NCBI RefSeq assembly: GCF_000344685.1
Contig: NW_006920419.1
Location: 1,009,288 to 1,073,287 of the forward strand
Reading direction: 5' to 3'
DNA: 64,000 nucleotides
Source of the DNA: Gloeophyllum trabeum ATCC 11539
Lineage: Eukaryota > Basidiomycota > Agaricomycetes > Gloeophyllales > Gloeophyllaceae
Below the pieces are notes generated by a model that worked only from the letters and a program-made list of their open reading frames with translations, ran no database searches and had not been told where the DNA came from. How positions within the stretch are numbered: position 1 is the first letter of the stretch; the number at the start of each line of letters is the position of its first letter. Below, piece by piece: positions 1 to 18,900 of the stretch. Both the position numbers and the translations under genes were made by a program.

Positions 1-47
1 AGTTATACTGACTCGTCTGGAAATCTAGTCATAAGCCTACTACTGCC

Positions 48-1941
48 ATGGTCTCTTTCACCGTCGTCATTGCCTCGATTCTTGTTATTTCGCCCGCTCT
101 TGGGGCTCCCGACCCCATCGAATTGCCCGCCACCATATTGTACGTCCTCGCTCTACACGGACTCAGATATTTTGTTTCATGCCAAATGCAGAAGTCTTCC
201 TGGCCCTGAACTCCCGGGATCTGCTCTCGGTCCTTCTGGAGACTTTAGCGTCCCTCAGACGACCTCCACAAGTACTCCTAGTGCATCCGCGTCCTTCCCT
301 TCATGAGTTGTTATGGACATACATGGATGTCATGAATCCTTATACACCATTACTCATCGCGCAGGCATGTTATCTTCCCTCCTGAGCTCAAATACCTGCC
401 GACGGATCTATCTCCGCCACTGCTCGAAGGCACAGCATCCACGCCTACAGCAGCGACGGTGTATGTTTATTATCTCGTGTTACAGCTCTTGTCAGCTGAG
501 CATTTCTGGCGTCATTCACCATAGATCTGCCAGAAGCGTTGGAACCACTACTGAAGAGGGTCTCAAAAACGGGCTTCAGTTTATTACCCAGGAGTTCTTC
601 GGGAGATCGGGTCCTGACCACAAAGAGCGTCGAAGCTTGGCCAGCGACGCGCTCAAAATAGCAAAGAAGTACGGACCTAAAGCTGTCGAGGCCCTCGGGC
701 CCTTGGCAACGGATCTCGCGGGGCATATCTTCGATTCTGGATACAGCACCTCTGACGCGAGCGCGCAGCCTACCACACCGTACGTTTAGGTCACCCCCTT
801 CACCCATAGCGACGATACTGAAGTATCTGCCGCTCTTAGGCCTCAGCGGAGGAGCGTAGCGAGCACGATGATTAAGGTAGCAGAGAAGTACGGTCCCGAC
901 GTGGCAAAGGTCCTCGAGCCAGTAGCGAGTCATCTCGCTGAGAAGGCCTTTGGCTCTGGTTCCAGCACTTCTGATGCGAGTGCTCAGCCTACTGCAGCCC
1001 CGTAAGCAGTGTCTCCTTTCTTTCTCGTCCATGCTGATCGAGGCATGTACTAGGGCCCACCGGAGGAGCGTGGCGAGCACGATAGGGAAGGTAGCGGAGA
1101 AGTACGGTCCGGAAGTGGCGAAGGCCCTTGAACCACTGGCGAGCAAGCTGGCAGAGCATGTCTTGGGCTCTGGGTCCAGCACTTCCGATGCCGGCTCAAC
1201 CACTGCTCGGTATGTACCAGATCCCGACCTTTGCTTCGTCCATTGAATCAAAACAAATGGTATCTGTATCAGACCCCAGCGAAGGAGCCTAGGTGACAAG
1301 GGACTTGAAGGGTCCGCAATCGCTCCGGGAATCGAACCGTCCATCGCAAGTGGAACTGGCGGTATTCCCTGTGCAAACCCTGATACTGCTGCACTGTCAG
1401 TGTTCTCTTATTCATTCCGCATTGATATTCATTCGTGCGTGCATGCCGGATGTCAGGAAAGCGCGCAGCGCAGCTAGCATTTTGGGCGATCTCGTGGAGA
1501 AGTTCGGCCCGGAGGTGGTGGATGGCATCCAGTCGCTGCTCAGCGGCGGCTCGAGCGACGGCAGCGTACGTAGCACCTCACCACCACCTTGTGACACCTA
1601 CTTACATCTATCTGTTCCTATAGTCCCAGCCGGCGCCTCGACTCCGCTACTCGGGCCTCTCTTGAAGCGCAACGCAAGGACATGCATGGATATTGTAAGT
1701 TACTACACCTACTTATTACGGTGTCTTGTCGCTAATATTCCTCCCTACGCACCTACAGTCGGAGCATAAAGCCTGCGTCCTTTGGCAATGATCGTCGATC
1801 ACTCGAAGATGACCTGGAAGCTTGCAAATCGGAAGTCTCTTCTTCCTGCTAAGGTCTCGTCGTAGCTTGGGGAAGGATCTGAAGCAGGGGGCTGAGGATC
1901 TGCTGCCTCTCCTGGGTGGCATCTTGGGTGGGGAAGAGTGA
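48..1941 (+). CDS. Secreted exon-repeat protein A (dibasic-site precursor-like)
   Basis: I do not recognise this family. The start at 48 gives a signal peptide (MVSFTVVIASILVISPALG) followed by a Ser/Thr/Pro-rich stretch (about 192-303) and then repeated exons. Units at about 612-781, 839-1001 and 1052-1211 share a core reading RRS-x-AS, then EKYGP-[ED]-V, then LEP-[LV]-A, ending in a Ser/Thr-rich tail (STSDAS). A degenerate unit lies at 1276-1390 and a shorter one at 1448-1567. The last exon reads SRRSLGKDLKQ...LLGGILGGEE and stops at 1939-1941. Introns are about 50-60 nt and the well-preserved repeat exons begin and end in phase 2. Gene B just downstream is a tandem paralogue with the same order. 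Oddities: the exon-2 donor expected at 303 reads ATGAGT, giving a stop at 304-306, and phases near 1567-1660 do not join cleanly, so A may be decaying. I infer a secreted precursor; the function is unknown. Confidence 0.5.
612..1567 (+). repeat. Repeated exons of gene A
   Basis: Five tandem units of about 35-53 codons, one per exon, separated by introns. The first three are well conserved: a dibasic RR, then S-[VL]-A-S, an amphipathic stretch, a central GP pair, a second amphipathic stretch and a Ser/Thr-rich tail. Unit 4 (1276-1390) keeps PQRRS but loses the helical core. Unit 5 (1448-1567) keeps EKFGPEVV but has KAR in place of the dibasic pair. Confidence 0.75.
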
Positions 1942-3287
1942 GAAGGGGGCAATAAAATACTATTATACGCGAACATAGTGCACATGTCGATGAATATTTG
2001 TACCGCTATGATCAACTAATGGCAGTATGCAGTTTCCTCTCCTGTTACCTCTCCGGCACAGATGACGAGGGAACGAAGCGCACCGATTCCCCTTTTTCAT
2101 AGCAGTTCTCTGATTCCGCAATTTCTTTCTTTGACGGTCTGGGCGTCGTTCATCCATGCTCCGGAAGAGCATCCGAGTCCATAGTAGCAAGTGATATCAA
2201 TGACAACTTGAAATGAAAACTTTTCTCCCGATACCCCCTTATTCAGAAAGTACTAGTAAGTACTCTGGGCTCCTTACTTCAATGCGACGGCACCGGAGCT
2301 GAAATGACGCTTCTCAAATATGCCATTGCGACCTGAGCGATCCCACTCTGCCGTCTGCTTCTCGTCCGCCAAACCTGCTCGTGTATCGAGCCTGAGCATG
2401 GGTACTGTTCAGACCTGTCGACTCTGGTCGGGCACTAGTCGTCCTTTCCCATTGGTAATATGATTTGCTACTAGTACTTTGCCTTTTCCGACAGATTGGG
2501 GGCTCTCCGATGTAACAAGCTGGTCACGGTGGTCATTTCGCCAGCTGCAGTGCGTAGCACCTGCATTACGCTGTATCGCAAGTCCAGTGAGAGGACTCGG
2601 ACTCGGGCTGCGAGTCGATGTCTTCCCCGAGCTGCCTAGCCCTGCCAATGTTACAGTGATGATGCAAACAGCGCTTCCGATTCCCCATCATTTACCCTCA
2701 GTTTCTCGTTTCTCTGACGATATCATACAGCGTTCCAGCTCATGATGTCCGGACTCCGTTATGCCCTCGGTGCAGATTCGCCACACAATCGATTCTCGGG
2801 TGGCGTATAGCGATTACTAGTTCAGCCTGTATCCGAGTCGACTCAATTTCCGGATCTGGACCTGCTCTAGAATCTAGGTCAGGGTTGCAAGTCGACATAC
2901 ACTGTTTATATTGCCTAGCGTCGTTGACCTCGTTTACTACTCTGTGAAAGACAATGGTTTTCGCGCGTTTACTAAAATTACAACGCGAGCTCTTAACAAG
3001 GCTACGGCACCTGCCAATGCCTACCTCTTCGGTGTGGATGTTGCGAGTGAAGCCTCTCAGATCATGGCAACCTTCAGAAGTCGGACATGAACTGATCATG
3101 ATCTTTTCTTCCGTAAGATAGCACTTCGCCGATCGCTGTCTCTCCCTACCATGGGACGTTCGGCCGACTTCATCTCATACCCGTATCTTCTTGATGCTCA
3201 GCCCGACCATTAGGTGGTGTACTATAATTACACTCTCGAGGCTGGTGTTGTGGGTCCCATTGTAGGGCCAACTAGGCAGGCCCGCTG
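1942..3287. other. Spacer between paralogues A and B, no gene seen
   Basis: Only short unrelated open frames occur on either strand, without plausible splice partners or recognisable domains. The 3' UTR of A and the distal promoter of B must lie here. Confidence 0.6.
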
Positions 3288-3293
3288 TATAAA
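3288..3293 (+). promoter_or_regulatory. TATA box of gene B
   Basis: TATAAA in a GC-rich setting, about 280 nt before the gene B start codon and followed by a pyrimidine-rich leader. The long gap allows for a long 5' UTR. Confidence 0.5.
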
Positions 3294-3466
3294 GGCCAGG
3301 CAGAACCCTCTCTGCAGCTCCAGAGAGGACCAGGTCTTCGCTCCCTTCTTCGTTCTATTCATTCGCTTCGGTGCCGGACAGTAAGCACGCGTCATTCAAC
3401 GCTGGGTCGCGCTTTCTGATCGCTCGCAGCCTTTACGTCTTCTTCGCGTTCACTATAGACTCTTTC

Positions 3467-3493
3467 ATGGTGCTGAGCACTGATAATATATAG
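3467..3493 (+). other. Possible upstream ORF in the gene B leader
   Basis: An ATG followed by seven sense codons and TAG (MVLSTDNI), lying between the TATA box and the gene B start. It could lower translation of B if the leader is unspliced here. A GTGAGT overlaps its end, but no acceptor at a usual intron distance was seen. Confidence 0.3.
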
Positions 3494-3566
3494 TGAGTTT
3501 TCTCCATATTCACCTGCTAGTTATACTGACTCCACCTACGATCGTAGTAATAAACCTATTGCTGCC

Positions 3567-6247
3567 ATGATTTGCACCACTATCGTCCTTGCAGTTTCCC
3601 CTGTCCTTGGAGTTCCGGTACCCGACACAGCCCGGAGAGCAGTGTACGTCTTACTCTAGCTGAACAGAGTCTCTGGATCCATGCTCCTCTGCAGAGGTTT
3701 CCGGGGCCAGAACCAGGGTCCAGGACTTGCACTTCCTCCTGGAAGCTTCGAATCCACTCGAACGACGACCACAGCTACTCTTACGACTTCCCTGGCTCTG
3801 TCGTAAGCTATGGGCTCAGGACTAACAGGATTTACTGTTCTTCTCACCTCCTCGACACGCCTTCATTGACACCTCTTGAATTACTTCCAGATATCCGAGA
3901 AACTAGAGCTACTGCGGCTCCTGTGTGCGTGTCATATCTGTCACTAACTAAGCGTTGACTCAGGGTGCCCGACAGCGCCAGCCCGTACTGCAGTCATCGG
4001 CACTGCCTTTGAAGACGGCCTCCAAGACGGGCTCAAGTTCATCGCATCGGAGCTCTTTGGCGGGCCCAATTCGGGAAGTACTAAACGCGAAATGTGAGTT
4101 CGTGACCGCCGGCATTGGATGCCATGCACTGAAACATCTGAGCAGCGGAGTGTCCCACATCCCCGTCAAGCTGTACGTCCTGTTCTATTTGAACTCAATA
4201 GCTGATTCCAGACATCTGCGCAGGCCAGATATCGCGCGTCCGGACTCCGGACCTCGCGTCGTTCTTCCTCCCTCTGCCATCCCTCAAGCGACCACCACGG
4301 CTGCCTCCAGTGCATCCGCTATCGCATCGTGAGCATTACGATTAGGTATTCTAGGAATGGCTGTCCATCAAGCTTCTCGCAACAGACATTCGTCCGCGTT
4401 TCGCTTCGCCCCCTCCATCCCCTCCGTCGGCTCGATTCCGAGTCCAACCATCCCCCCTTTCTTGATTGATGGGCAGGCAAACGGGTAGGCTCACGAAGGC
4501 TATGACTGGAGCCCCATGTACTGAATATACGAAAGTCATCAGACCTCAGCGGAGGAGCGTTGCGAGCACCATAGGGAAAGTGGCAGAGAAGTCCGGCCCG
4601 GACGTGGCAAAGGCCCTCGAGCCAATTGCTAACAAACTCGCGGAGAAGGCCTTCGGCTCTGATTCGAGCACCTCCGATGCGAGCGCCCCACCTACTACAT
4701 CGTATGTATCCGCGCCAACTGTCCTCTATGTCCGCGTTAATTATGACTCGTCGCTATGGATTAGACCTCAGCGTAGGCGCGTAAAGCCTGAGCGCAAGAT
4801 GATCGATGGGACAACCGTCATTCCTCCGACTGAGCTACCCATATGCGGCCCTGGCGATTATGATCATGATGTCAATTGTATACAACCACTGTCAGCCGTT
4901 TTTGCTTGTGCTCGCTTCCCTCTGGACTCACATTCTCTCGTATTCCATAGAAGTGCGGAGCGTTATGGCTGACGTCGTGAATGATCTCGGCCCCGAGGTG
5001 GTCGACGGTATCCATTCGCTGCTCGAACACGGCTCGGGCACGGCGACCGTGGCGTACGTGGCGCGCCATGCTTTCCCCCGTAGAGGTGGCACACTAACCA
5101 CGCATTTTGGCTAGTCCCAGCCGGCGCTCCCCCGGCCTCGGCCCTGCAACATGGGCCGAGCTCCGCCAGATGCACGAGGAACTCCCGCAGAAATACGGGA
5201 AAGTAGGTTCAGCTAGCCTGATCCTTACTCACACGGCCATGACCACGTACCCAGTTCGGCCGGATCGTGAGTCACAAATATCTCCCTGGCGGATAGACAC
5301 ACGCTCACACTTGTCTCCGATTCTTTTCTGCTTAACCTGAACCTTGATACCTTGATGTTTGATCATATGCTTTCCCGGGGCGCGGCGCAGAGGCGTAGCG
5401 GGCACAATCGAGGAGTTGGGCCCGAAGGTGCGACATCTTCCACGACGCCCTCGGGTCCGGCCCGAGCACGGCGACCGCAGCGTAAGTCCCTGCATCTCCC
5501 CCGGCTGCTGGCACACTGACACACTTGCTGGACAGCCCCAGCCGCCGCGCCCCGGGTCACCTCTCTCCAGTCGCACCCGCTGGCTCGTCCCCCGAGTCCC
5601 CATTTTCCGCACCCCCGAGTCCCCGTTTTTGTCAGTCCACCCCCCCCCCCCTTCGAGAGGCGATCTGTGTCTCACTCGCATTACGGCTCCAGCGCTCCCA
5701 TTCGGTGAGTGGAGTCGGAAAGAGTGCTCGCACAGACCCTCGCGCCCGACGACGGCCAGGCGAGACGTGGACACCACGCTCGCGGGCCTCGCCCCGGAGG
5801 AGCTGACGCGCTCGCGCCCTCACGCCCTCCCCGTGACGCACACCGCACGCTGGCCCTGGCCGAGCCGGCGCAGGCAGACGACGTGAGTCCCCTCCCCATC
5901 CCCGCCCGCCCGCCCATCTGCTCGTGGATCCCATGCAGAGGAGTCGCGACGTGCGTCTGATACCAAGTGCCGTGTCCCGGGCGCACTGTCGCCGCGGTAA
6001 CGACGATGCCGCCGAGCGGCGGGCGGGCGCTCGCTGGCGGAGATATCGAGGGCAGCATCGAGCCGTCCGGCTGATCAGGGGCGGGGTATATCCCCCGCCT
6101 GCGTCCGTCTTGTCTGCTCCTTCCTATCCGCAGTGGGTGACTCGTACTCGTACTTGGTGCCCTCGTTTGCGAACCTGTTTTAGCGAGAAGAGGAGTTTCG
6201 GGGGGACACTCGCGGACGCGCTGCCGCTGTTTGGTGCGGGCGGGTGA
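3567..6247 (+). CDS. Secreted exon-repeat protein B (dibasic-site precursor-like)
   Basis: This is the tandem paralogue of gene A. The two share about 30 bp before the start, a signal peptide (MICTTIVLAVSPVLGVPVP here), a Thr/Ser-rich second exon, an exon reading AFEDGLQDGLKFIASELFGG (EEGLKNGLQFITQEFFG in A), repeat exons and a similar last exon. Repeat units: 4543-4700 (PQRRSVASTIGKVAEKSGPD), a degenerate PQRRR unit at 4765-4840, a GPEVVDGIHSLLEHG unit at 4960-5053, a PSRRS unit at 5115-5200 and an RRRGVAGTIEELGP unit at 5395-5470. The final exon follows a TTTTAG acceptor and reads KRSFGGTLADALPLFGAGG, stopping at 6245-6247. The part from 5,500 to 6,180 is very GC-rich and its exons are unsure. 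No known function; a precursor cut at dibasic sites by a Kex2-type protease is my inference. Confidence 0.5.
4543..5470 (+). repeat. Repeated exons of gene B
   Basis: One well-conserved unit (4543-4700) is followed by four shorter or degenerate ones. Intron junctions are mostly phase 2, as in gene A. Most units open with RR, RRR or KR. The GP pair is kept in the units at 4960-5053 and 5395-5470. Confidence 0.65.
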
Positions 6248-6645
6248 GTGAGCGGAGCGGTATCGTGGTTGGTGGATGTGGCGGTTGCTGGCGGTGATAT
6301 CGCTGCCTGCGCTCGTTCTCGGCTGGCCAAGGTGTGCGTGCAGGAAGCGCTAGCCGCTGCGTGTCGCAGCAGTCCTCGGCGTCTCGCGGGGGGAGGTGGA
6401 ATGTCGCTCGAGGGATGCCGCGTGCTTGTGCTGCGGGGGCGCAGCTTTCGGAGGATCTGAAGCACGGGTGGGTTTGAGGACGTACCGAGGCCTGGCCTCC
6501 GGGGTGGGAGGATAACATGCGATGTACGCTGCGAAAGAAGGTCTGCATGTACCGGAATGGCAGTAGGTACATGTGATGCAACGTCCACGAAACGGAGTAC
6601 CTACCCACGCAGCGTCAAGAAAACGGCCTCCGCGCCATCCCATCC

Positions 6646-7791
6646 CTACTCCCCTACTCCGCCTGCCTCCTCTCCCTCCCCCCTCTTGATATCCGTCCTC
6701 TGCCCCTGCAAAATCCCCCCGGCCATCCTCGCCACCACGCGCTCCGGCAACACCCGCAACACCCAGCTCGTGAGCTCGTGCACCCAGTACGGCGTCACAT
6801 ACTCCTTGTCCCGCCCGATCGCGACTATGATGGCTCTGGCCATGACGTCGGGGTGCGGCGCGGCGAGCGAGACGGGCGAGCCGTTCGCCTTGGTCGCGAC
6901 GGAGTGGATTTCGTGGTATTGCACGGAAATGGGTGAGGGGGAGAGGAGGGCGAGTTCGGTGCGGAGGGCGCGGGAGAAGGCCTGTCCGACACCGTTCAGG
7001 TTGGGGAACAGGGAGTGAGGGGGTAGTGGGAAGAGGGAAGAAGAAAGGGGGACGCACGAGCATGTACCCCTTCGTCCCCGCGTACACCGCGAGGAACGGC
7101 GGGGGGTGCCTGGCGACGTAGCTCCCGACGTTGACGACCGCGGCGGGCGCGTCCGCGCGCAGCTGCGGGAGGAGCGCGCGCGTGAGCTGCGTCGTCCAGC
7201 TGCACCCGATGTCGATGCCTCTTTGTACCGCTATACCATGCCATACCAATCAGTTCACCTCTCAACGGGACAGTACGCGACCGAGTGAGTGAGAGCGGGT
7301 CCTTACCGTCGTAGTCCTGCGTCTCCAGCGGCTGTATCAGCGTGCTCGTATACCCCGCGTTGTTCACCAGGATCGTCACGGTCCGGCCCTTACACGCCTC
7401 CGCAACCTCGCGCGCCAGCGCGGACTTGGTCGCGTCCGCGACGACGATTTCGAACTGCGCGTTCGGGCACTCGGCGGCGAGCTCGGATCGGACGGCGGTG
7501 AGTTTCGTGGGGTTGCGCCCGTGCAGGAGGACGTGGAAGCCTTTTTGCGCGAGGGCTTTTGCTACGCTGGTAAGGGGGGACGCGTCGGGGGTCAGGAGGG
7601 ACGGATGAGGCGGGGAGGAAGGGGACGCACGCCTTGCCGATGCCGTCAGACGCGCCGGTGACGAGCGCCCACGACTCCTGGCCGTGCTTGTACTACTGCG
7701 CAGAGTGTGTCAGTGCGTGGTGGTGCGGCGGAGGAGGGAGAGTACGGACACGGTTGATCCCGTTGGGGCTCGCCCAGAGACGCCAGAGCAT
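6646..7791 (-). CDS. Short-chain dehydrogenase/reductase, 3-ketoacyl-CoA/hydroxysteroid reductase-like
   Basis: An NAD(P)H-dependent oxidoreductase of about 280 residues. Spliced exons give the Rossmann motif TGASDGIGKA near residue 27, the NNAG motif (LVNNAGYTST) and the catalytic NVGS...YAGTKGY, which holds the Ser, Tyr-x3-Lys triad. A hydrophobic/basic tail follows (WVHELTSWVLRVLPERVVARM). Order and tail resemble the Ifa38/HSD17B12 group, which reduces 3-ketoacyl-CoA during very-long-chain fatty-acid elongation at the ER, but the long N-terminal anchor of that group is missing. A sterol or other carbonyl substrate is therefore equally possible. Five short introns with GTGCGT, GTAAGG or GTCCGT donors restore one frame. 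The start at 7789-7791 (MLWRLWASPNGIN) is the first ATG in frame before the Rossmann fold; a longer frame runs upstream without a better start. Confidence 0.75.
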
Positions 7792-9184: not shown

Positions 9185-9322
9185 CCCCGCCCGCCCGCTC
9201 GCAGCCCTCCATTCCCTTTCCACATCTGAGGCCGGATCCTCTGCAACGCACCTAGTCGTTCGCTTGACACTTTACGTTCACCTTCTGCCCTCTTTGCCAG
9301 CACCCCTCCCTCCAGCTTTACC

Positions 9323-10051
9323 ATGTTCGCCAAGCCCCTCCTCGCCTCCCTCCTCGCCGCCTCGCTCGCGCTCCAGGTCAGCGCGCACGCGGCCATCGCC
9401 CCCGCGCTCGGCGTCAAGGGCACGCCCGCGCGCAGCGACGTCCAGCGGCCCAGCGCGCAGAGTCCCTGCGGGAACGTGAACGTCGCGCAGGCGCTGGGCA
9501 CGTCCGCCGCCGTCACGATGTCCGGCACCACCTTCGCCGCCACCATCACGAACTTCAACGGGTACGCCTCCCCCCCCCCCTATTCCTTTTATTTCGGTGC
9601 GCGGTCGTGTCATTGATAAAAACGTAGTGGCACGGACGGCTCCCGCCAAGTGACGGCCAAGATCGACGCAGCCGGCACCGGCAAGTCTTTCGTCGCCGCC
9701 ACGGTGACCAAGAACGGCGACAAGTCCCCCGCCACGACGGGCTCGCAGCAGCTCGAGGTGCAGGTGCCAGCCAACACCAAGTGCGCGGGCGGCCCGAATA
9801 AGGATACGTGCCTCGTGTCGTTCACGACCGCCGGGGGATTCGGGAACTGCGTGGCGGTCAAGCAGGGGGGTGCGGCGGCGGCGGCGGCGGCGGTGGGGAA
9901 CCAGGCCTCGGCGAAGAAGGGCAAGGCCGGGAAACAGGCGCGGGCTTGGGTGAGTTGTCTGTCCACCTCGAACGGACGGGTGAGACTGATGTTTGTGTCG
10001 CTTCAGGGATCGCGGCAGGCTAGGGCGTACGCTTTGGGCGACCTCGAGTGA
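9323..10051 (+). CDS. Gas1-like (GEgh16/Egh16-like) secreted protein
   Basis: A secreted protein of about 205 residues, in three exons (9323-9561, 9628-9949, 10007-10051). The signal peptide ends at about residue 21 (LALQVSA), so the mature chain would begin HAAIAPALGVKG. The middle part carries the family pattern PCGNVN, TNFNGGTDGSRQV and CAGGPNKDTCLVSF, with Cys residues that could pair, then FGNCVAVKQGG, an Ala run and a basic Lys/Arg-rich tail. Relatives in ascomycetes (Gas1/Gas2, GEgh16) are expressed during appressorium formation; basidiomycete copies are common and of unknown biochemistry. The N-terminal His is typical of the family and recalls copper-binding lytic monooxygenases, but no second His of a brace can be assigned by eye. 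Neighbours do not point to a pathway. Confidence 0.85.
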
Positions 10052-10441
10052 ACTTGAGGGCTTCGGTGTCATGAAGAGTACTGGTATGGCTGTCAAGCTG
10101 TTTTCGACTCGATGTGGTTGTACCTCTATCCGCTGTGTTCCCGGGAGCATGGCGTTAATGATGATGTTGGATTGGGTTGTGGCACGTTTCGATTCTGGTT
10201 CCCTTGAGCACACGGCACTGGCAGCGGTGGTATCCCCGTTCCTGCCTGTATTCGCGTCGGCATGCCTCGGGTCCGGGTCAGTCTGTTGACGCTGACACCC
10301 ACAATTGAGCATGGCAGGCTGCCATAAAGCGTAGGCTACACAGCCAACAACAAATTTGTATACCGTCGTTTTGTCACAAAAATAGCGTCACCCAACCACC
10401 GGTCCTATGCAAGTACATTCTATACCCCTCAGTGTTTCTTC

Positions 10442-11896
10442 TCAAGTCCTCCCTTTCAAGTCCAACTCGGCCTGCATCGCCTCGCCGAACACGCCCGCGA
10501 GCAGATTGTTGGCCGCGAGCGTCGCCATGCCGAGCCGCGTCTCCGTCGTCGCGCTCCCGATGTGCGGGAGGACGACGCACCTGTCGGACCATCAGTCCGC
10601 AGTCCCCGCCCACCCGCGCTCATCACTCACCGGGGCTCCTGCACGAGCGGGTGCGCGCTCCCCACCGCCGGCTCGCCCTCGACGACGTCCACGCCCGCGC
10701 CCCACAGCCACCCCTCGCGCAGCGCGCGCGCGAGCGCGTGCGCGTCGACGAGCGTCCCGCGCGCGGTGTTCACGAGCACCGCCGTGCGCTTCATCTGCCG
10801 CAGGAAGCGCTCGTCGACGACGTGGCGCGTCGCCGCGCCGCCCGGCGCGAGCACGAAGACGACGTCGCTGCCGCGCGCGAGCGCGGCGAGGCTGCCCGCG
10901 CGCCGGACGGACGTGAGGCTGAATTGGCGGGTGTACTGCGCGTCCTGCGCGGGGCTCGGCGCGGAGCCGGGGGAGGTGGTGTACAGCGCGTGCGTGATCC
11001 CGAAGGGCACGAGGCGCGCGAGCGTGGCGCGCGCGATGCGCCCGAAGCCGATGAAGCCCGCGGTGCGGGTGCTGGAGGGGGACGGGCGGGAGAGCTGCGG
11101 GCCGCAGAAGGAGAAGGGGGACCAGGAGGTGTTGGGCCACTGGGGTGGGGTTAGCGGGGTGGGGGATGGCGATGGGAGGGGGAGTGAGGGAATGGGGGGA
11201 ACGAGTAAGGGACGCACCTCCCCCCGCTGCACGACGCCCATCGTCTCCTTCGCGTTCCGGCCCGCCATCAGCGCGAGCATCACCGATACGTCCGCGACTG
11301 TCCACACATCATTTGCATTTCAGCTTGGTGTACTAGCGGGAGTGGGGAACGGGAGAGGGAGGAATGGTCACCTGCGTCGGTGAGCACGTCGGGCGTGTAC
11401 CCCAGCCGGACGTTGCGCGCGGCGAGGGCGGGGAGGTCGACGTGTTCTGTGTGTGGGGCGGTGAGGAAAAAGGTACGAGAGGGAGGTGGGCAGGGGCGCA
11501 CCGTAGCCAACCGACATCGTAGACACCACCTTCAAAGTGGGACCAGCTGCACGCCCGTCAACATCCCCGCGAAAGCGCGGCAGCTACGACGCGCCTTTAT
11601 CGAGTAATTCCTCGTTCACCTGGTGGGGTGAGGGTGCATGAGACGCGAGTGGACGGGGCAGGAGGAGGGAAGTACCTTGTCCGAGAGCATCACCAGCACG
11701 CCCGCCGCCCCCGGTACGTGCTCGAGCAGCCACGCGCGCTCGCACGCGCGGTCCTCCGGCCAGACGACGACCTACGTACAGACCGTCACCGCGTGCGCCG
11801 TGCGACGCCGTTCCAGGTACTCACGTCGAGCTCCGTGCGCGCGCGGAGGAGGGGCATCACGTCCGGGCCCAGGTCGCGGCAGACGACGACCTTCAT
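10442..11896 (-). CDS. D-isomer-specific 2-hydroxyacid dehydrogenase, glyoxylate/hydroxypyruvate reductase-like
   Basis: Reduces 2-oxo acids such as glyoxylate or hydroxypyruvate with NAD(P)H. The start at 11894-11896 gives [18 protein letters not shown], typical for the family; an in-frame ATG at 11986 would add 30 residues rich in Ser/Ala/Thr and could supply a mitochondrial presequence. Visible motifs: [20 protein letters not shown], then [14 protein letters not shown], then the dinucleotide-binding GFIGFGRIA, then NTARG (substrate-binding Arg), GVDVVEGEP (catalytic Glu) and PHIGSAT (catalytic His). The stop at 10442-10444 follows LDLKGRT. Several short introns split the gene. All catalytic residues are present, so it looks functional. 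The exact 2-oxo acid cannot be told from sequence. Confidence 0.85.
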
Positions 11897-11986
11897 GCGA
11901 CTGGTGCTGGTGGGAGGCCTGAGGTGAGATGCGAGCGAGGTCAGACGGTGCATGGGTGCTGACGCTGACGCTGGCTCGGCGGACAT

Positions 11987-12994
11987 GGCTCTCCAGAAAT
12001 CTTGCTCGCGGTGATTTTGGAATGGAGGGGAGAAGGGAGGAAGGGACGGGCGGGTGGCCGACGGAGGGGTATTTCAGGATGAGATGCAAGGGAGATATGG
12101 GCGGCCCCGGGCCGGGAGCCGTCATGTGCGGGTTAGGGATTCCGTTGGTACATCGCGTGCGCCAAAAGCATCAGAGAGAGTTTCGGGTGCGGCAGTCGTT
12201 CGCGAGTAGTTGTCAGCAGCGTCCGTGCTTGCTGCATATATGTTGCTGAAGGTGGCAAGGCCTGAGCTCAGGCTGTGAGTGATCGTGATGAGGTCAACGT
12301 CTGCCACGCCCTAATGTGAATCCCGCTGAGACTGCTGTACCCCATATGAACGAGCTCGAAGCGCACACGTTAAGTATTGTGGGCGTCGTCCATGCTTCCA
12401 GAGTCATGTAAAGTGGTGATGGTGTAGGGAAACTTTGACGACACAGCGTACTGATCTCAGCCACATTCAGCCACTGGACATCGGAGCCCATTGTGCTACA
12501 TACTAGAAACTATATATCACAGTGCAAATAAGGGCTACACGAGGCTACGCGACGGTACACAATGACAGGTTGGGACAAACCTCAGCCATAATTGGGTTAA
12601 AATACATGTAATACAAAGGGTAAATACATTCGGCCAGTCCGTTGCCAACTTGCCACACAGCCGTGTCCGGACTGTAACCGGCATGGGAGCTCGGTCATGA
12701 CCGGTGTCCGGACTGTAAAACCGGGATGGCCGGTTCGGTCGTCCATCCTTGTCCGGATGGCGTCTGGCATGGAGGGCTCGAGACCGCGATTTTTGTCCGG
12801 ACTAGCACCGGCATCTATCGGTATTTTCAGGGGTCCTGGCAAACTGTCCGACCGGACCGGCCAACTCCGGACGCGCTGTCGTGAGAGTCAGTGACGTCGC
12901 TCTCTAACGCGCTCGAGATTTGTCTTGATTCGACTCTGCCTTGTGACATTGGTTCTCCTCTGCTGTTTGCTCTACTACCACTTCACAACCGGCC
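11987..12994. other. Divergent intergenic region upstream of LTN1
   Basis: Divergent promoter space between the hydroxyacid dehydrogenase and LTN1. Short leftward frames at 12122-12307 and 12294-12491 have no recognisable domain and I did not call them. The part nearest LTN1 holds the palindrome cluster listed separately. Confidence 0.5.
12663..12815. repeat. Cluster of short GTCCGGAC-centred repeats
   Basis: GTGTCCGGACTGTAA occurs at 12663-12677 and 12704-12718, with a related TTGTCCGGACTAG at about 12794 and TTGTCCGGATGG near 12749. GTCCGGAC is its own reverse complement. ACCGGCAT follows two of the copies. Confidence 0.6.
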
Positions 12995-15900
12995 ATGGGC
13001 AAGGGCCAGAAATCCTCTGCCTCCTCCGGCACTCGCAAGAAACACGCACGCAAAGCCGCAGGCCCGCAGGAGCCCACCCCGACCAAAGACAAGCGAGACA
13101 AGGGCACGGGCAAGGGCAAGGGCAAGAACAAGGAGCCGCGCAAGAAAGTGTACATCCCCCCGACCAAGCCCGCGCCCGCGCGCCCCGACCCGCTCGACAC
13201 CCTCGGGCTCGCCAACCAGCTCCCGCCGGAGCTCCTCGTCGTCCTGCGCAGTCTAAGGAAGAAGGACGCGGTCACAAAGGCCAAGGCGCTCGAGGAGCTG
13301 CTCGGCGCGTGGGTGGAGAGGGCGCTCGGGACCCGGGATGAGGGCGCGGTGGCGGCGACGCTCGTGCTCATGCTGCCGGTGTGGGTGCGTGCCGCGGCTT
13401 GTATCCACACTATCTCGAGGTTGAATCCAAGTTTCTTGCATCGCAATGGCATCGCACAAAGGTCCACCACATGCCCGCGCTCTTCCTCCACCCCTCGCGC
13501 CGCATCCGGCTGCTCGCAGCCAGCGTCCACTCCTCGCTCCTGCGCATCCCGGACGCGCGCGCCGCGCTCCTCACCTTCCTCGCCGACGCCGCCCCGCCCG
13601 ACCAGGCCGAGTGCGTGCTCGGCGCGTGGTGCATGGCCGGCAGCGACGCCGACCGGCTCGTCGCGCGGCACGCGCGCGCGTCCTGGGAGGACTTTGTTTC
13701 CCTTGCCCCGCCAAGTGCGTCTCATTCCAATACCGATTCCGATTCCGATAGGTTGGCGCTGGATGAGAGCGCGCTGCTGCGCATGCTGCAGCGCACCGCG
13801 CTCGACCCGGGCGCGGTCTACCTCTCCCTCAACCCGCCGCAGGTGAGCGTGGAGCCCGGCGTCCCGGGGCGGAAGGCCCCACCGAAGAGGCGGGAGGAGG
13901 AGCCGGTGAGGGCGAAGACCGAGGACGAGGAGGAGAGCGAGGACGACCGCAATGCGCGGCTGCGCGTCGGCGCGCTGGGGGGTCTGAAGTGGGTGCTAGG
14001 TGAGCGTCTGATTCGTTTAATGAAAGTGGTGTCAAGGGGATTGCTGAGAGTGCCTCCTCCCGGAGACGCGCGGAATGCGAATAACGTGGAGGGCGCGAAG
14101 TCGCTGAAAGGCCTCGCGGAGATCCTAGGCAACCCCGCCCTCTGGACTTCACTGTCTCACGCGCGCGCGGCGCCGTGGGTCGACGTGCCGAGTTTTGGGT
14201 GCGGCCAGCCGGTCGTGCGGCGGGCGGCGTGGGCGCTCGTGCAGGCCCTGGTAGGGCACTGGGCAGGTGCGTTCCTTCACCCGCATCCGTGTGGACACGG
14301 GGCTGACGGGTATGGACTGTAGAGGAGGTGAAGAACGCGGACTTGCTGGGCGTGCTGAGTACGGTCGTGCTGAGGTCCGCGTGGGTGGAGCCGGACCCGA
14401 CGGTGAGGACGGTGATGTGGCAGCCGCTCATGATGTTCCTCAAAGGTTCGCTCCTCCCCCCTTCTCTCTGTATTCCTAATATCCATGTTTGCGTGCACCC
14501 TAACCCTGACTCGCACCCCCGCTCAGAGTTCCCGCAAGCGTGGACGGTCGATGGCTCCAAGACCGCCGCCGACGATGCGTCCGAATCCGACGGGGATCAC
14601 AGCGACGAGGAGGACGGGGACAGGGAGCAGGGCACCCCCGGCCCCGCTCCCACCACGCCGGGCACGTCGCTAGCGTACGACGAGTTCCTGCAGTTCCTCC
14701 AGCTCGGCTGCGCGGGCTCGCCGCTGCAGGGCTACCCGACGGTCGTCATCGTGCTCTCCACGCTGCCCGCTTCCGTGCGTCCCCCTCCCCTCTCTCCCTT
14801 CCTCCATATATTATCCCGCTGATTCCCTGCGTTTTGTGTTCGCGTGTGTGTGCAGTTCCTGAGTACGCCTACCGTAGAAGACGCACTGAAGGATCTGTTC
14901 ACGTCCTTTTGGGCGGCAGTCGACGCGCGCGCGCTCGGCGGGCTGGACAAAGCCGCCGCGCACAGGGCGTTCCTCTCATCTCTCCTCGAGTGCACCGCGT
15001 TCCTCGTCCGGCGCATCAGACAGGATCCCGCATTCCGCGATGCGAATGTGGATGCGCATGAAGTGCGTAGGTGGCTGGTGGGGGAGCAATCTGCGAGAGT
15101 GATGGAGGCGCTGGCGGGAGGCGGGTTGAGGGTGGAGGGGGCGGGGGCGGGGGCGGGGGCGCTGGTGGGGAGGCACCTGGAGGCGCTCGAGGGCGTTGAT
15201 ATAGGTGCGATTTTTCTCGGTCCCTGGTTCCTCGTCTTTGGCGGTCGTGTGCTGAACCCGCCCGCGGGCGCTCAGAACTGTTCAGGGCCGCGTGGGCGCC
15301 GGTCGACGCTACCCTCGCCCGCGTGGGCGCGCGGTTCGCGTGTGGTGCCCTGAAGGCGTTTTGGGAGACGTTCGGGGAGGGCAGTGAGGCGCGGGCGGCG
15401 GCGCGGAGGGCGATTGGGGAGGTTGCGCGGCGCGCGGTGGGGGAGGTGCAGGCTAGGTTGGCGGGGAAGGAGGGCGAGGGGGAGGGAGAGGGCGAGTTTG
15501 CGTTGGAGGTTGTGCTGCGTGTTTTGGGCGAGGCGGTGGTTGGTGATGAGGAGTTGACTGCTGTATGTGGGCGGTGTGTCTACCATCGGAAGCCTCGGTG
15601 TGTTGAATTTTTGCCTTGCAGGCGATCGACGAGACTGTCCAGGCGAATGTCGCGCAGCTCGTCGACGCTGCGCCCTCGCTGCTCCTCGCGTACCTCACCC
15701 ACCGGAACGATCAAGCACGCGCCCTGGAAATCTGGCGTAGGATTCTGGACGTGCTCTCCGGCAAGGACCCGCGCGAGCTGGCTACGCGCATCGCGCCCTT
15801 CGCCAGGGCCGGCGCGCTCCCGTGCTACTGCGCCCCGGAGGACGGCGAGCTGGACGAGCCGCTCACGCGGTTGGTGGCGCACGCGTCGGGGGGGAGCGTG

Positions 15901-18900
15901 GATTCGGAGGCGGCGGGCGTGGTGTGTTCGGTATTGCGCAACCCTCGTGAGCTCTCAATCCTTCATTGGTTGTATTGGCTGGATGGTGATACTGACTGAG
16001 CGGTGGGGGTGGGATGGCAGAGTACTTCTTGTCGAGCGCCGCGCGTGTCGGGCTGGTTGAGGGTTTGGTGGCGACGTTCGGTGTGCACGTACAGCAGGCG
16101 CTGAGAGATCCCGCGGCCGCGGCGTACACGCAGGCGTTTGAGAATTTGCTGGGGTTGCTGGAGGCGGCGTTGGCGGGGGATCCTGCGGTGTTGTCGTCAT
16201 CGACGCTTGGGGTGGGGTTGCTGCCTGATCTCTGTCTGTTCGCGTATGTGCTTCCGACGTTCTCTTCGTCCAAGGGTGAGGCATACTTTGAGAAAGCGAG
16301 GGATCTGTGGAATGGATGGTGGGGCCAAAGTACAGAGGAGTCACGCTCGGATACCCAAGCTGCGCTGGTTGGCAAGTTGCGCGATATTATTTTGGATACG
16401 CAGGTTGCGGTGACGTGAGTCCATTGCTTAGTGGGTTGGCTGAGACTCTGAAATGCGCATTTGCTTTTTGCACTAGGCCGGACAGTGTCCTGGATGTGCT
16501 GTGGGATGGTATCCCGGGGCTAGACATTCAAGCCGCTGATGTATTACCGGACTCGGGGACCATGCTCCGGATGCTCGAAGGCCTACCTACATATCCTGAG
16601 GACCCGAGCGCCGCAGTTGTCAACAATCTCATTCCTCCTGCATCTCTTCTGGGCGACCGCGTCACCTGGACGCCCGAGTATGATTCCGAGGGGTATTCAC
16701 AGTACGGGAGAGTTACGACTGCGTTTGCTCGGGTGTTTGCCTCGGATCGTCAAGCAGCCAAAGAGCATATCTGGGCTCTGCAACATCTTTTGGCGGCAAG
16801 CGTCTATGCCGAAGACCAGGTTCAACTTTCCTTGGAGCGTAACCCACTGTGTACCCGCAAGGTGTCTAGAGCAAAGCTGCAAGCCTTTGTGTCTAGAGTG
16901 CAGTCAATCACTGCGTACCTCCTCGTCCCGGATGCGGAAGACGGGTGGCATTCAAAGATCGTCAACGCCGCCCAAGATCCAGCTATCGAACGAAGTACCC
17001 CGTCCACTCTCACCGCGCATCTCATCCAGTATGCTTCCGGGCACGACAACCCACGAGAGGCGCGTGTCCTGTATGCCGCGCTCCAGACCGTCATGAGCGG
17101 TGCAACTAAGGAAGAAGCAGACGAATGGATAATGCTAGCTCGGAAACTCGAGAAGAAGGCGCCGTTGACCTCGATAGCTCTCGTGTCCTGCGTGACTGCG
17201 TTCGGACCTGAGCCACCACGGTTAGATCGCTACAGGAATGAGCTAGCTGCGGGAATTTTCGGTGTACCTGCTTCGAAGGCCAACGACGAAGGGCTCTTGA
17301 GTCTACTGAGACTCGCGGCTACTGCTCCCGATCCGGAGTCGGACGTGGTATTCCTCCCTCAGCCGAGGGCTATCAACCTCATGAAAGCCTGTCAGCAGTG
17401 GGTCGAATCTGACGAGGATATTTCGGAGGATGTCGAGAGCGCGATGACGCTGATATTCTACCACCTGGTGCCGATCTTGCAAGACGTTCCTGGAGGCCAC
17501 TGGGACTTCATTTTTGATGTCATAGAGAATAACCTTGAGGTAAGCCTCACGCACGCTCTGTGATCTCCACCCATCCTCATTCTATCGACTTTGAGAACGG
17601 CTCCTTCAACGAGAATTCCACTCTTGTGACTCTGGCGCGTACATTCAGGCTCATCATCGCCATCCAAGATATAGCGACGACCAACAAGTCGCTCCGCGCC
17701 CTATGGGACGAGCGGCGGCAGGCTGTCCTGACGTTGGTCAGAGACCTAATAGCGTCACGCGAGAGTTAGTGAATCGTTACGGGCATTTTTCATGTTCTAA
17801 CGAGCATCAGGTTCACGGGCCCCTTCCACCCCTCAGTTAATGTCTCTGGAGTTGGCGATGTCAATCGTCCAAGATATGCCTGATTCCCTACACGACGCGA
17901 AGATTCTACCTTCGGTGAGTATCTCGCCTGTGCTCCAAGCCGGGGCTATCGTTAATGCTCTCGCCAGATGTGTCGCCTCATCGTCAATACGTCATCAGAA
18001 ACGCAGAAAATGGCGTATCACTTGCTGCAGGAGTCTAGTAGGAAGTACACGGAAAACCTCGTCATTGAAGCAGGAGTTGATACAGAGGCTAACGTCAAAT
18101 GCGAGCTCCCCATGGAGCTGGTAGATATCCTTCAGCGATCCATCTCGGACGACGATCCAGACGATATACCTCAGGTTTGTCGTGACCATCGCATGGAGCG
18201 CGTTTTCTAATGTTTTGTAGGATCCATTTGGGTATTTCTTGGCATGGATGGCCGTCTTCGACCTCTTCTCGAACGCGGTGTGTAATCATGCCTGGTCACC
18301 CGTCTACGTTCGCTGACATTCCGAGGTTAGTCTTTCAAAGTCAAATCTGGATATATTCAACATCTGAGAGACCTGGATCTCATATCGACAAGGTTCTTGC
18401 CCTACATCTTCAATGCGTTAGGCCTCTATGGTGGCCCTCGCTCGACCTTCAAGCTGGACGTTTGGGCGGTTGACGAGTACCATGTTTCACGTAAGTAGAC
18501 ACCTGATGCGTTGCTCCTTGCACAGCCTCAAATAGGCCCTTCGCCCAGTGTACGATCCGGACGTCCCAGTCAGTGCAGCTCTGCAAGCCGCGCACCTGTA
18601 TTACCGTGGCCTGCTGATTATTCCCTCCCTCATCCGTGCCTGGCTCCAAGATTGCAAGGACCGCACCCTTTCTACGACGGTCACCACGTTCACCGCCCAA
18701 CATTACTCTCCAGTCATCATTGCCACGGAGTTTGCTCGGGTCAAGTCTCCCGACGCTGCCTCTGAGTTAGAGCACGAGAACTTGGCAATCAAGGTCGCTG
18801 GCACTGTTAACGAGATAACGGCGTCCTGGGCTGTGGACGAGCACCAATTGGAGATTTCTCTGAAGTTACCGGCAGACTGGCCCTTGCACCCAGTTCAGGT

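What the first reader, a model, noticed from the sequence alone, without database searches (positions are those of the whole stretch)
48..6247. Tandem genes for secreted precursors in which each repeat is its own exon and most open with a dibasic site
Seen: two paralogues with signal peptides. Their repeat exons mostly open with RR, RRR or KR followed by S or G, then two amphipathic stretches around a GP pair and a Ser/Thr-rich tail. The final exons of A (RRSLGKDL) and B (KRSFGGTL) have diverged in sequence but both keep a dibasic pair before Ser. The well-preserved repeat exons are phase 2 at both ends, so they can be gained, lost or skipped without shifting frame. Known: fungal Kex2-processed repeat proteins (Rep1, Ece1, dikaritins, alpha-factor) release several peptides from one precursor. 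Inference: an exon-per-peptide precursor in which duplication or alternative splicing changes the peptide set. I do not know such a family.
Basis: partly seen in the sequence, partly recalled or inferred. Interest (0 to 1): 0.82.

Follow-up and report, generated by a model that had tools for sequence, protein, structure and literature searches.

The report
Exon-by-exon secreted peptide precursor gene pair
A brown-rot fungus carries two neighbouring genes for a secreted protein built of repeated helical segments, several of them on separate exons that start with a likely protease cutting site; it is probably a peptide precursor of a known general kind with an unusual, exon-modular gene structure, but cutting has not been shown.

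Summary
The window is from Gloeophyllum trabeum ATCC 11539. Gene A is the annotated hypothetical protein GLOTRDRAFT_94863 (377 aa); my hand-built exons 1 and 3-7 match that public model. A carries three ~50-residue fragments between RR sites, plus a shorter cousin. The units evolve under purifying selection (dN/dS 0.13-0.42 in the five computable pairs). An xxRRS-like start recurs: a dibasic pair within four codons at 10 of 25 candidate exon starts, against about 5% at background YAG sites. It also opens exons whose bodies look unrelated to the unit. Only 3 of those 10 starts (A5, A6, A7) are in a public model.

Corrections: A's first unit shares its exon with an upstream segment. The RRSLGKDL exon start is not in the public model. 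B has one good unit; its public model (GLOTRDRAFT_94864) stops before it, and some B exons conflict in frame. No transcript or peptide data were available, so cutting and alternative splicing are inferred.

Three protein searches returned only these two proteins; gene A reached no Pfam cut-off; no other locus in the genome matched. Best reading: a lineage-restricted, Kex2-processed-repeat-like (KEP-like) precursor of ~50-aa two-helix amphipathic peptides with phase-2 repeat exons. New variant of a known kind.

The parts
48..139 (+). Gene A exon 1: signal-like peptide MVSFTVVIASILVISPALGAPDP..., ends phase 2
   Evidence: in public model P0001 (GLOTRDRAFT_94863)
192..303 (+). Candidate exon A2 (Pro/Ser/Thr-rich); no GT donor at the expected place; right edge approximate; skipped in the public model
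   Evidence: related to B2 and B6 (repeat family D3)
365..460 (+). Gene A exon 3, phase 2 at both ends
525..779 (+). Gene A exon 4: segment SARSVGTTTEEGLKNGLQFITQEFFG plus first repeat unit RRSLASDALKIAKKYGP... in one exon; phase 2/2
840..1001 (+). Gene A exon 5: repeat unit PQRRSVASTMIKVAEKYGPDVAK...; phase 2/2
1054..1209 (+). Gene A exon 6: repeat unit AHRRSVASTIGKVAEKYGPEVAK...; phase 2/2
1273..1395 (+). Gene A exon 7: opens PQRRSLGD, body unlike the unit; phase 2/2
1457..1569 (+). Gene A exon 8: shorter cousin of the unit (KARSAASILGDLVEKFGPEVVDG...), single R only; ends phase 1 in the public model
1624..1694 (+). Gene A exon 9 of the public model (phase 1: LPAGASTPLLGPLLKRNARTCMDI); a phase-2 reading would open PSRR
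1854..1941 (+).
3179..3531 (+). Promoter region of B, 72% like the region just upstream of A
3567..3643 (+). Gene B exon 1: signal-like peptide MICTTIVLAVSPVLGVPVPDTARR
   Evidence: same residues in P0002 (GLOTRDRAFT_94864)
3695..3802 (+). Gene B exon 2, Pro/Thr-rich; read in a different frame in the public model
3964..4093 (+). B4: exon with GTAFEDGLQDGLKFIASELFGG, counterpart of the first part of A exon 4; open only when entered in phase 1
4224..4328 (+). B6 (relative of A2/B2), phase 2/2
4386..4484 (+). B7, phase 2/2; the public model reads on past its donor and stops
4543..4701 (+). B8: the one well-preserved repeat unit of B, PQRRSVASTIGKVAEKSGP...; phase 2/2; not in the public model
4765..4890 (+). 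B9: opens PQRRR, counterpart of A exon 7 by position, opening and donor
4951..5053 (+). B10: counterpart of A exon 8; open only when entered in phase 1
5115..5202 (+). B11: exon candidate opening PSRRSP
5536..5704 (+). B14: exon candidate opening PSRRAP; B10-intron-B11 and B13-intron-B14 alike through the intron
6184..6247 (+).
6440..6468 (+). DNA match to the start of the A last exon, in a different frame

Best explanation
Gene A (and probably, less intact, gene B) encodes a secreted precursor. After signal removal, a Kex2-type protease in the late secretory pathway would cut after the RR pairs at the start of the units and release three ~50-residue peptides, trimmed of their C-terminal basic pair. 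Each peptide is a short amphipathic helix, a GP break, a second amphipathic helix, and a disordered Ser/Thr-rich tail. They most likely act outside the cell as membrane- or surface-active peptides. The gene grew by duplication of whole exons with phase-2 borders, so copies could be added without frame loss. Shown: exon structure in silico, repeat homology, selection on units, recurring dibasic exon starts. Inferred: secretion, cutting, peptide activity, the duplication route. Not shown: alternative splicing.
For: Exons 1 and 3-7 reproduced by an independent public annotation. Units show an excess of third-position changes; dN/dS 0.13-0.42 in the five pairs where dS is finite, dS saturated in the sixth. 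In-silico cutting at KR/RR gives fragments of 51, 52 and 50 aa, aligned at 56%, 51% and 72% identity. RRS four times, 0 of 20,000 shuffles; 3 dibasic pairs just after junctions, P=0.014. Dibasic pair within four codons, phase-2 frame, at 10 of 15 exon starts tested (10 of all 25 candidate starts; the ten left out have none), against 0 and 2 of 15 in the other frames, 7 of 162 other YAG sites in 1-6400 and 82 of 1524 in the rest of the window. First helix amphipathic beyond shuffles in 4 of 4 units (P 0.001-0.012), second in 3 of 4 at P<0.05. AlphaFold of the unit: helices 3-17 and 19-38, disordered tail, mean pLDDT 64.5. A Kex2-type P_proprotein domain is encoded in the genome.
Against: No transcript, proteome or peptide evidence. 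Unit identity (51-72%) is lower than in near-identical KEP repeats. The number of dibasic pairs in the A protein is not unusual (P=0.076). The last exon of A in the public model lacks the RR. In both AlphaFold models the RR falls in the first turn or so of the predicted helix, not in the free linker. A Kex2 preference for KR, and a weak fit of Pro or Ala at P4, are recalled, not tested. Gene B has one unit and frame conflicts.
Confidence: 0.55

Rival explanations
1. A secreted, uncut helical-repeat protein (for example a surface or wall-associated protein with S/T-rich, probably O-glycosylated linkers). The RRS motif is kept because it caps the first helix or because the exons share ancestry.
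For: The motif opens every full unit copy by descent; units are long (~50 aa) and only 51-72% alike; in the models the RR lies in the first turn or so of the predicted helix (full-length pLDDT only 42.3).
Against: RR-like starts recur on exons with bodies that look unrelated to the unit (A7, B9, last exons), though most of these are outside the public models; the RR borders a predicted disordered linker.
Confidence: 0.27
2. A young or decaying orphan locus: A is transcribed with little function and B is a degenerating copy; the 3' exons are remnants.
For: Only these two G. trabeum proteins found in three searches; no GT donor at A2; frame conflicts in B2-B4 and B10; public B model stops before the unit; A8/B10 show little constraint (pS 0.31, pN 0.27, 18 codons); a B copy of the last-exon start lies in another frame.
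Against: Strong constraint on the full units, including B8 (dN/dS 0.13-0.17 against A5/A6); promoter regions alike at 72%; in-frame readings exist for A and B with every intron phase 2.
Confidence: 0.15
3. A dikaritin-type RiPP precursor whose core peptides are cyclised by UstYa proteins.
For: Signal-like peptide plus repeats between dibasic sites, as in ustiloxin precursors (PMC7329392 abstract).
Against: None of the 13 UstYa matches reported for the genome (a lower bound) lies on this contig; fragments of 50 aa are far longer than dikaritin cores (size recalled).
Confidence: 0.03

Closest known systems
KEX2-processed repeat proteins (KEPs) of fungi
   Same: Signal-like N-terminus; at least three repeats of 8-100 aa between RR/KR sites (definition read in PMC7329392 section 13); motif size 50 aa lies in the reported 3-352 aa range (passage of PMC6339444)
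   Different: Repeats less alike than the 70% rule of PMC9769878 section 14; unit copies A5, A6 (and B8) lie on separate phase-2 exons; the word exon does not occur in the main texts of the three KEP papers (find counts)
Ustilago maydis Rep1 (repellent)
   Same: Several secreted peptides from one Kex2-cut repetitive precursor, water-repellent (passage of PMC7329392); amphipathic (cited title); peptide length of tens of residues (recalled)
   Different: Not compared directly; Rep1 not among the hits; Rep1 exon structure not checked
Candida albicans Ece1 / candidalysin precursor (names recalled)
   Same: Non-identical peptides from one Kex-cut precursor (passage of PMC6339444)
   Different: No relation in the searches done; peptides here carry long Ser/Thr-rich tails and near-zero net charge over the helices
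Aphid bicycle genes
   Same: Orphan secreted proteins whose internal exons are almost all phase 2 (passages of PMC9168663)
   Different: Animal effectors with CYC motifs and many small exons; an analogy, not a relation; no dibasic exon starts in the passages seen

Membership tests
KEP (Umemura 2020 rule) | Signal peptide | tested here: inconclusive
   Hydrophobic N-termini in A and B; SignalP could not be run
KEP (Umemura 2020 rule) | At least 3 tandem repeats, each 8-100 aa, between KR/KK/RK/RR | tested here: met
   Gene A: 51, 52 and 50 aa when cut at KR/RR. If KK is also cut, the first splits into 10 and 39 aa. Gene B: one full unit only, so not met for B
KEP (Umemura 2020 rule) | Per-residue repeat score above 0.6 | not tested
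   The published scoring was not rerun
KEP (Vogt 2022 screen) | A fragment at least 70% identical to two others | tested here: not met
   28/50, 25/49 and 36/50 by local alignment: one pair of three reaches 70%. The second, RADAR-based visual screen of that paper was not applied; it took proteins under 300 aa
KEP | Kex2 cleavage in vivo | not testable with these tools
   Only one P_proprotein match in the genome was shown
Dikaritin RiPP | UstYa (DUF3328) genes near the precursor | tested here: not met
   13 matches on C1, C4, C5, C6, C7 and C14, none on C10
Known Pfam family | Match over the curated cut-off | tested here: not met
   Gene A core protein only: best 13.8 bits against cut-off 25, SicP-binding. 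B proteins were not scanned
Known fold by sequence | Relative among solved structures | tested here: not met
   Unit profile: 11 matches up to E 10, best E 0.16

The most novel reading that the evidence does not exclude
An exon-cassette peptide precursor: each cassette carries its own protease site at its 5' end and has phase-2 borders, so exon duplication, loss or skipping rewrites the set of secreted peptides without breaking the frame. The same dibasic exon start is also reused by exons with unrelated bodies.
Probability: 0.2. Interest if true: 0.75.

Novelty: new variant of a known kind. Interest (0 to 1): 0.5.

Why it matters
If cut as proposed, exon borders and peptide borders nearly coincide. 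This would make G. trabeum a simple system for asking whether fungi change their secreted peptide set by exon gain, loss or skipping. The public annotation of gene B stops before its unit, so such genes may be under-counted by protein-based KEP surveys.

Tried and rejected
Dikaritin-type modification: rejected for lack of UstYa matches on the contig. Wider gene family: a unit, P0001 and P0002 against the own genome gave matches only inside this locus (4, 11 and 5 matches up to E 10; only the best candidates are scored by that tool). Relatives elsewhere: three protein searches up to E 10 returned only P0001 and P0002. In the first two only about 8,000 best-word candidates were scored and Ser/Thr-rich words may have crowded the list; the third (73 residues of P0001) had 257 candidates. 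Other fungal genomes could not be searched with these tools. Intron duplication: of 45 intron pairs only B10-11 with B13-14 stood out (z 4.1, next 1.9); introns beside the units do not look alike. The full-length AlphaFold model is too weak to use (pLDDT 42.3). No fold search was run, because a two-helix model at pLDDT 64.5 would match many unrelated chains.

Papers: four searches for an exon-per-repeat precursor. One search held 0 papers; one (an ant antimicrobial-peptide paper, listing seen only); one (PMC8786786, passages: genes with one or two introns); one search was loose (1,418 papers, 8 listed) and says little. One search (Rep1 and intron) listed 4, of which only PMC9769878 had been opened, for other passages. 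None of the listings describes such a precursor. A search for G. trabeum gene ids gave one paper, whose main text does not hold 94863. PMC7329392 lists Gloeophyllum among the genera of a widely shared KEP type; I could not see its sequence, and such a spread does not fit an orphan. Supplements could not be read, so I cannot say whether GLOTRDRAFT_94863 is in the survey lists.

Changed on checking: the dibasic count is now given as 10 of 25 candidate starts as well as 10 of the 15 tested, and as 3 of 10 in a public model; confidence in the best explanation and the novel case was lowered a little for this, and the first two rivals raised a little.
Full report
Origin. The window lies on a 1.64-Mb contig of a 35.5-Mb genome. 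The best protein match names it: gene A is GLOTRDRAFT_94863, hypothetical protein of Gloeophyllum trabeum ATCC 11539. Gene B is GLOTRDRAFT_94864. That G. trabeum is a brown-rot fungus agrees with PMC10512373 (title and start of abstract in the listing, passages).

Observation, gene A. I placed exons by hand before seeing the public protein. A script then mapped the public protein onto the DNA: 48-139, 365-460, 525-779, 840-1001, 1054-1209, 1273-1395, 1457-1569, 1624-1694, 1876-1941; a second solution differed only at the very end. The first six introns are phase 2, the last two phases 1 and 0. My exons agreed for 48-1395. Whether the public model rests on transcripts is not known to me. Candidate exon A2 (192 to about 301) is absent from it and lacks a GT donor at the expected place, which its relative B2 has.

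The unit. Four copies of 159 nt. The first (628-780) shares its exon with an upstream segment, the next two (A5, A6) are separate exons, the fourth is B8. Shorter cousins are A8 and B10. Pairwise dN/dS by Nei-Gojobori over 44 codons: 0.13, 0.17, 0.21, 0.23 and 0.42, with dS saturated in the sixth pair. Amino-acid differences are fewer than under random substitution (at most 1 of 1000 simulations reached them, in each of six pairs). A8/B10 show little constraint (pS 0.31, pN 0.27, 18 codons).

Dibasic exon starts. Of 25 candidate exon starts (10 in A after exon 1, 15 in B after exon 1), reading one base and then codons gives a dibasic pair within four residues at 10: A5 PQRRS, A6 AHRRS, A7 PQRRS, A9 PSRRL, A11 SRRS, B8 PQRRS, B9 PQRRR, B11 PSRRS, B14 PSRRA, B16 EKRS. 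One search listed 15 of the 25; the five without a pair there are SARS, KARS, PDIA, HSSA and PSRP. The ten I left out (A2, A3, A10, B2, B3, B4, B5, B10, B12, B13) have no pair in that frame. For the 15, the other two frames give 0 and 2; other YAG sites give 7 of 162 in 1-6400 and 82 of 1524 in the rest of the window. Caveats: starts were chosen partly by eye; units are related by descent; only A5, A6 and A7 are in a public model; A11 uses an AAG acceptor. Within the public A protein, 3 of 6 dibasic pairs lie just after a junction (P=0.014), while the total of 6 is not unusual (P=0.076).

The final exons. The public model starts the A last exon at 1876, after the RR. Against this, the A and B last-exon peptides resemble each other from the dibasic pair onward (shuffle P 0.0015); at DNA level these two places do not resemble each other (406 of 500 shuffles as good). 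A second place in B (6440-6468) matches the A exon at DNA level from the RS codons on (0 of 500 shuffles of the A stretch as good), in another frame.

Gene B. One good unit. Two readings exist. The public 199-aa protein includes B4 but ends just past B7, before the unit. My reading (247 residues printed, 245 before the stop) keeps all six introns phase 2 and includes the unit, B9 and the KRS exon, but skips B4 and needs introns of 421 and 1293 nt. B may be drifting or partly decayed.

Exon relationships. Besides the unit, A2, B2 and B6 form a second exon family (63-75% over 40 nt, D3). A7 and B9 correspond in position, opening and donor, by eye hardly in body. B10-intron-B11 and B13-intron-B14 are alike through the intron (71% over 107 nt; intron cores z 4.1). 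Introns beside the units are not alike. This fits growth by duplication of exon blocks with phase-2 borders, old enough at the units for introns to have diverged.

What the product looks like. Cutting the public A protein at KR/RR gives 97, 51, 52, 50, 88 and 29 residues; the units are the 51, 52 and 50. The first helix has a hydrophobic moment beyond shuffles in four of four units; the second in three of four at P<0.05 (A5: 0.061). AlphaFold of the unit from a six-row alignment gives helices 3-17 and 19-38, broken at the Gly of the GP pair, and a disordered tail; mean pLDDT 64.5. The RR is in the first turn of the first helix. Net charge over the helices is near zero, unlike typical cationic antimicrobial peptides (comparison recalled).

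Mechanism. Secretion, then cutting after RR by Kex2, is the simplest reading. It is inferred. The genome encodes a P_proprotein domain, as expected of fungi (recalled). Surface or membrane activity is inferred from amphipathicity and from precursors such as Rep1 (passage) and the Candida one (passage). Defence, competition or surface wetting cannot be told apart.

Known kinds. The KEP surveys and study (PMC6339444: outline, abstract, passages; PMC7329392: outline, abstract, passages, section 13; PMC9769878: outline, abstract, passages, section 14) define precursors by repeats between dibasic sites. Gene A meets the count and length rule but not the 70% rule. None of the three main texts contains the word exon. 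Aphid bicycle genes also have nearly all internal exons in phase 2 (PMC9168663, passages); that paper calls genes with many same-phase exons of similar size rare. This is an analogy only.

Verdict. The repeat, its selection and its exon placement in A are real and more than chance. The family is an orphan so far. It is probably a KEP-like precursor with an exon-modular layout. The strong claims (peptide release, splicing-driven variety) wait for RNA and peptide data.

Noticed in passing
window 6646-7709 (-) and L003:4270-5166 (-): Short-chain dehydrogenase-like genes flank the locus on both sides. The window one matches PF00106 in ORF 6996-7709, and 6758-6924 matches the upstream one at 65% over 167 nt, so the wider region may have been duplicated.
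   Followed up: partly
L003:9572-9901 and window 3179-3531: Promoter regions of A and B are 72% alike over about 358 nt.
   Followed up: partly
G000 contigs C1, C4, C5, C6, C7, C14: Thirteen UstYa (DUF3328) matches, four of the contigs (C5, C6, C7, C14) with close pairs on opposite strands, which look like dikaritin-type clusters in this fungus.
   Followed up: no
window 5030-5135 and 5458-5556: Exon end, intron and next exon start are duplicated together (71% over 107 nt).
   Followed up: partly
window about 3467: The public protein of gene B starts at an ATG upstream of the likely signal peptide, inside the leader region, which may be a mis-annotation.
   Followed up: no
window 9278-17563: Seven long stop-to-stop frames here (255-423 aa) have no Pfam match at E 0.001 (which scanned 10 of the 18 frames listed); they may be non-coding frames in GC-rich DNA or orphan genes.
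   Followed up: no
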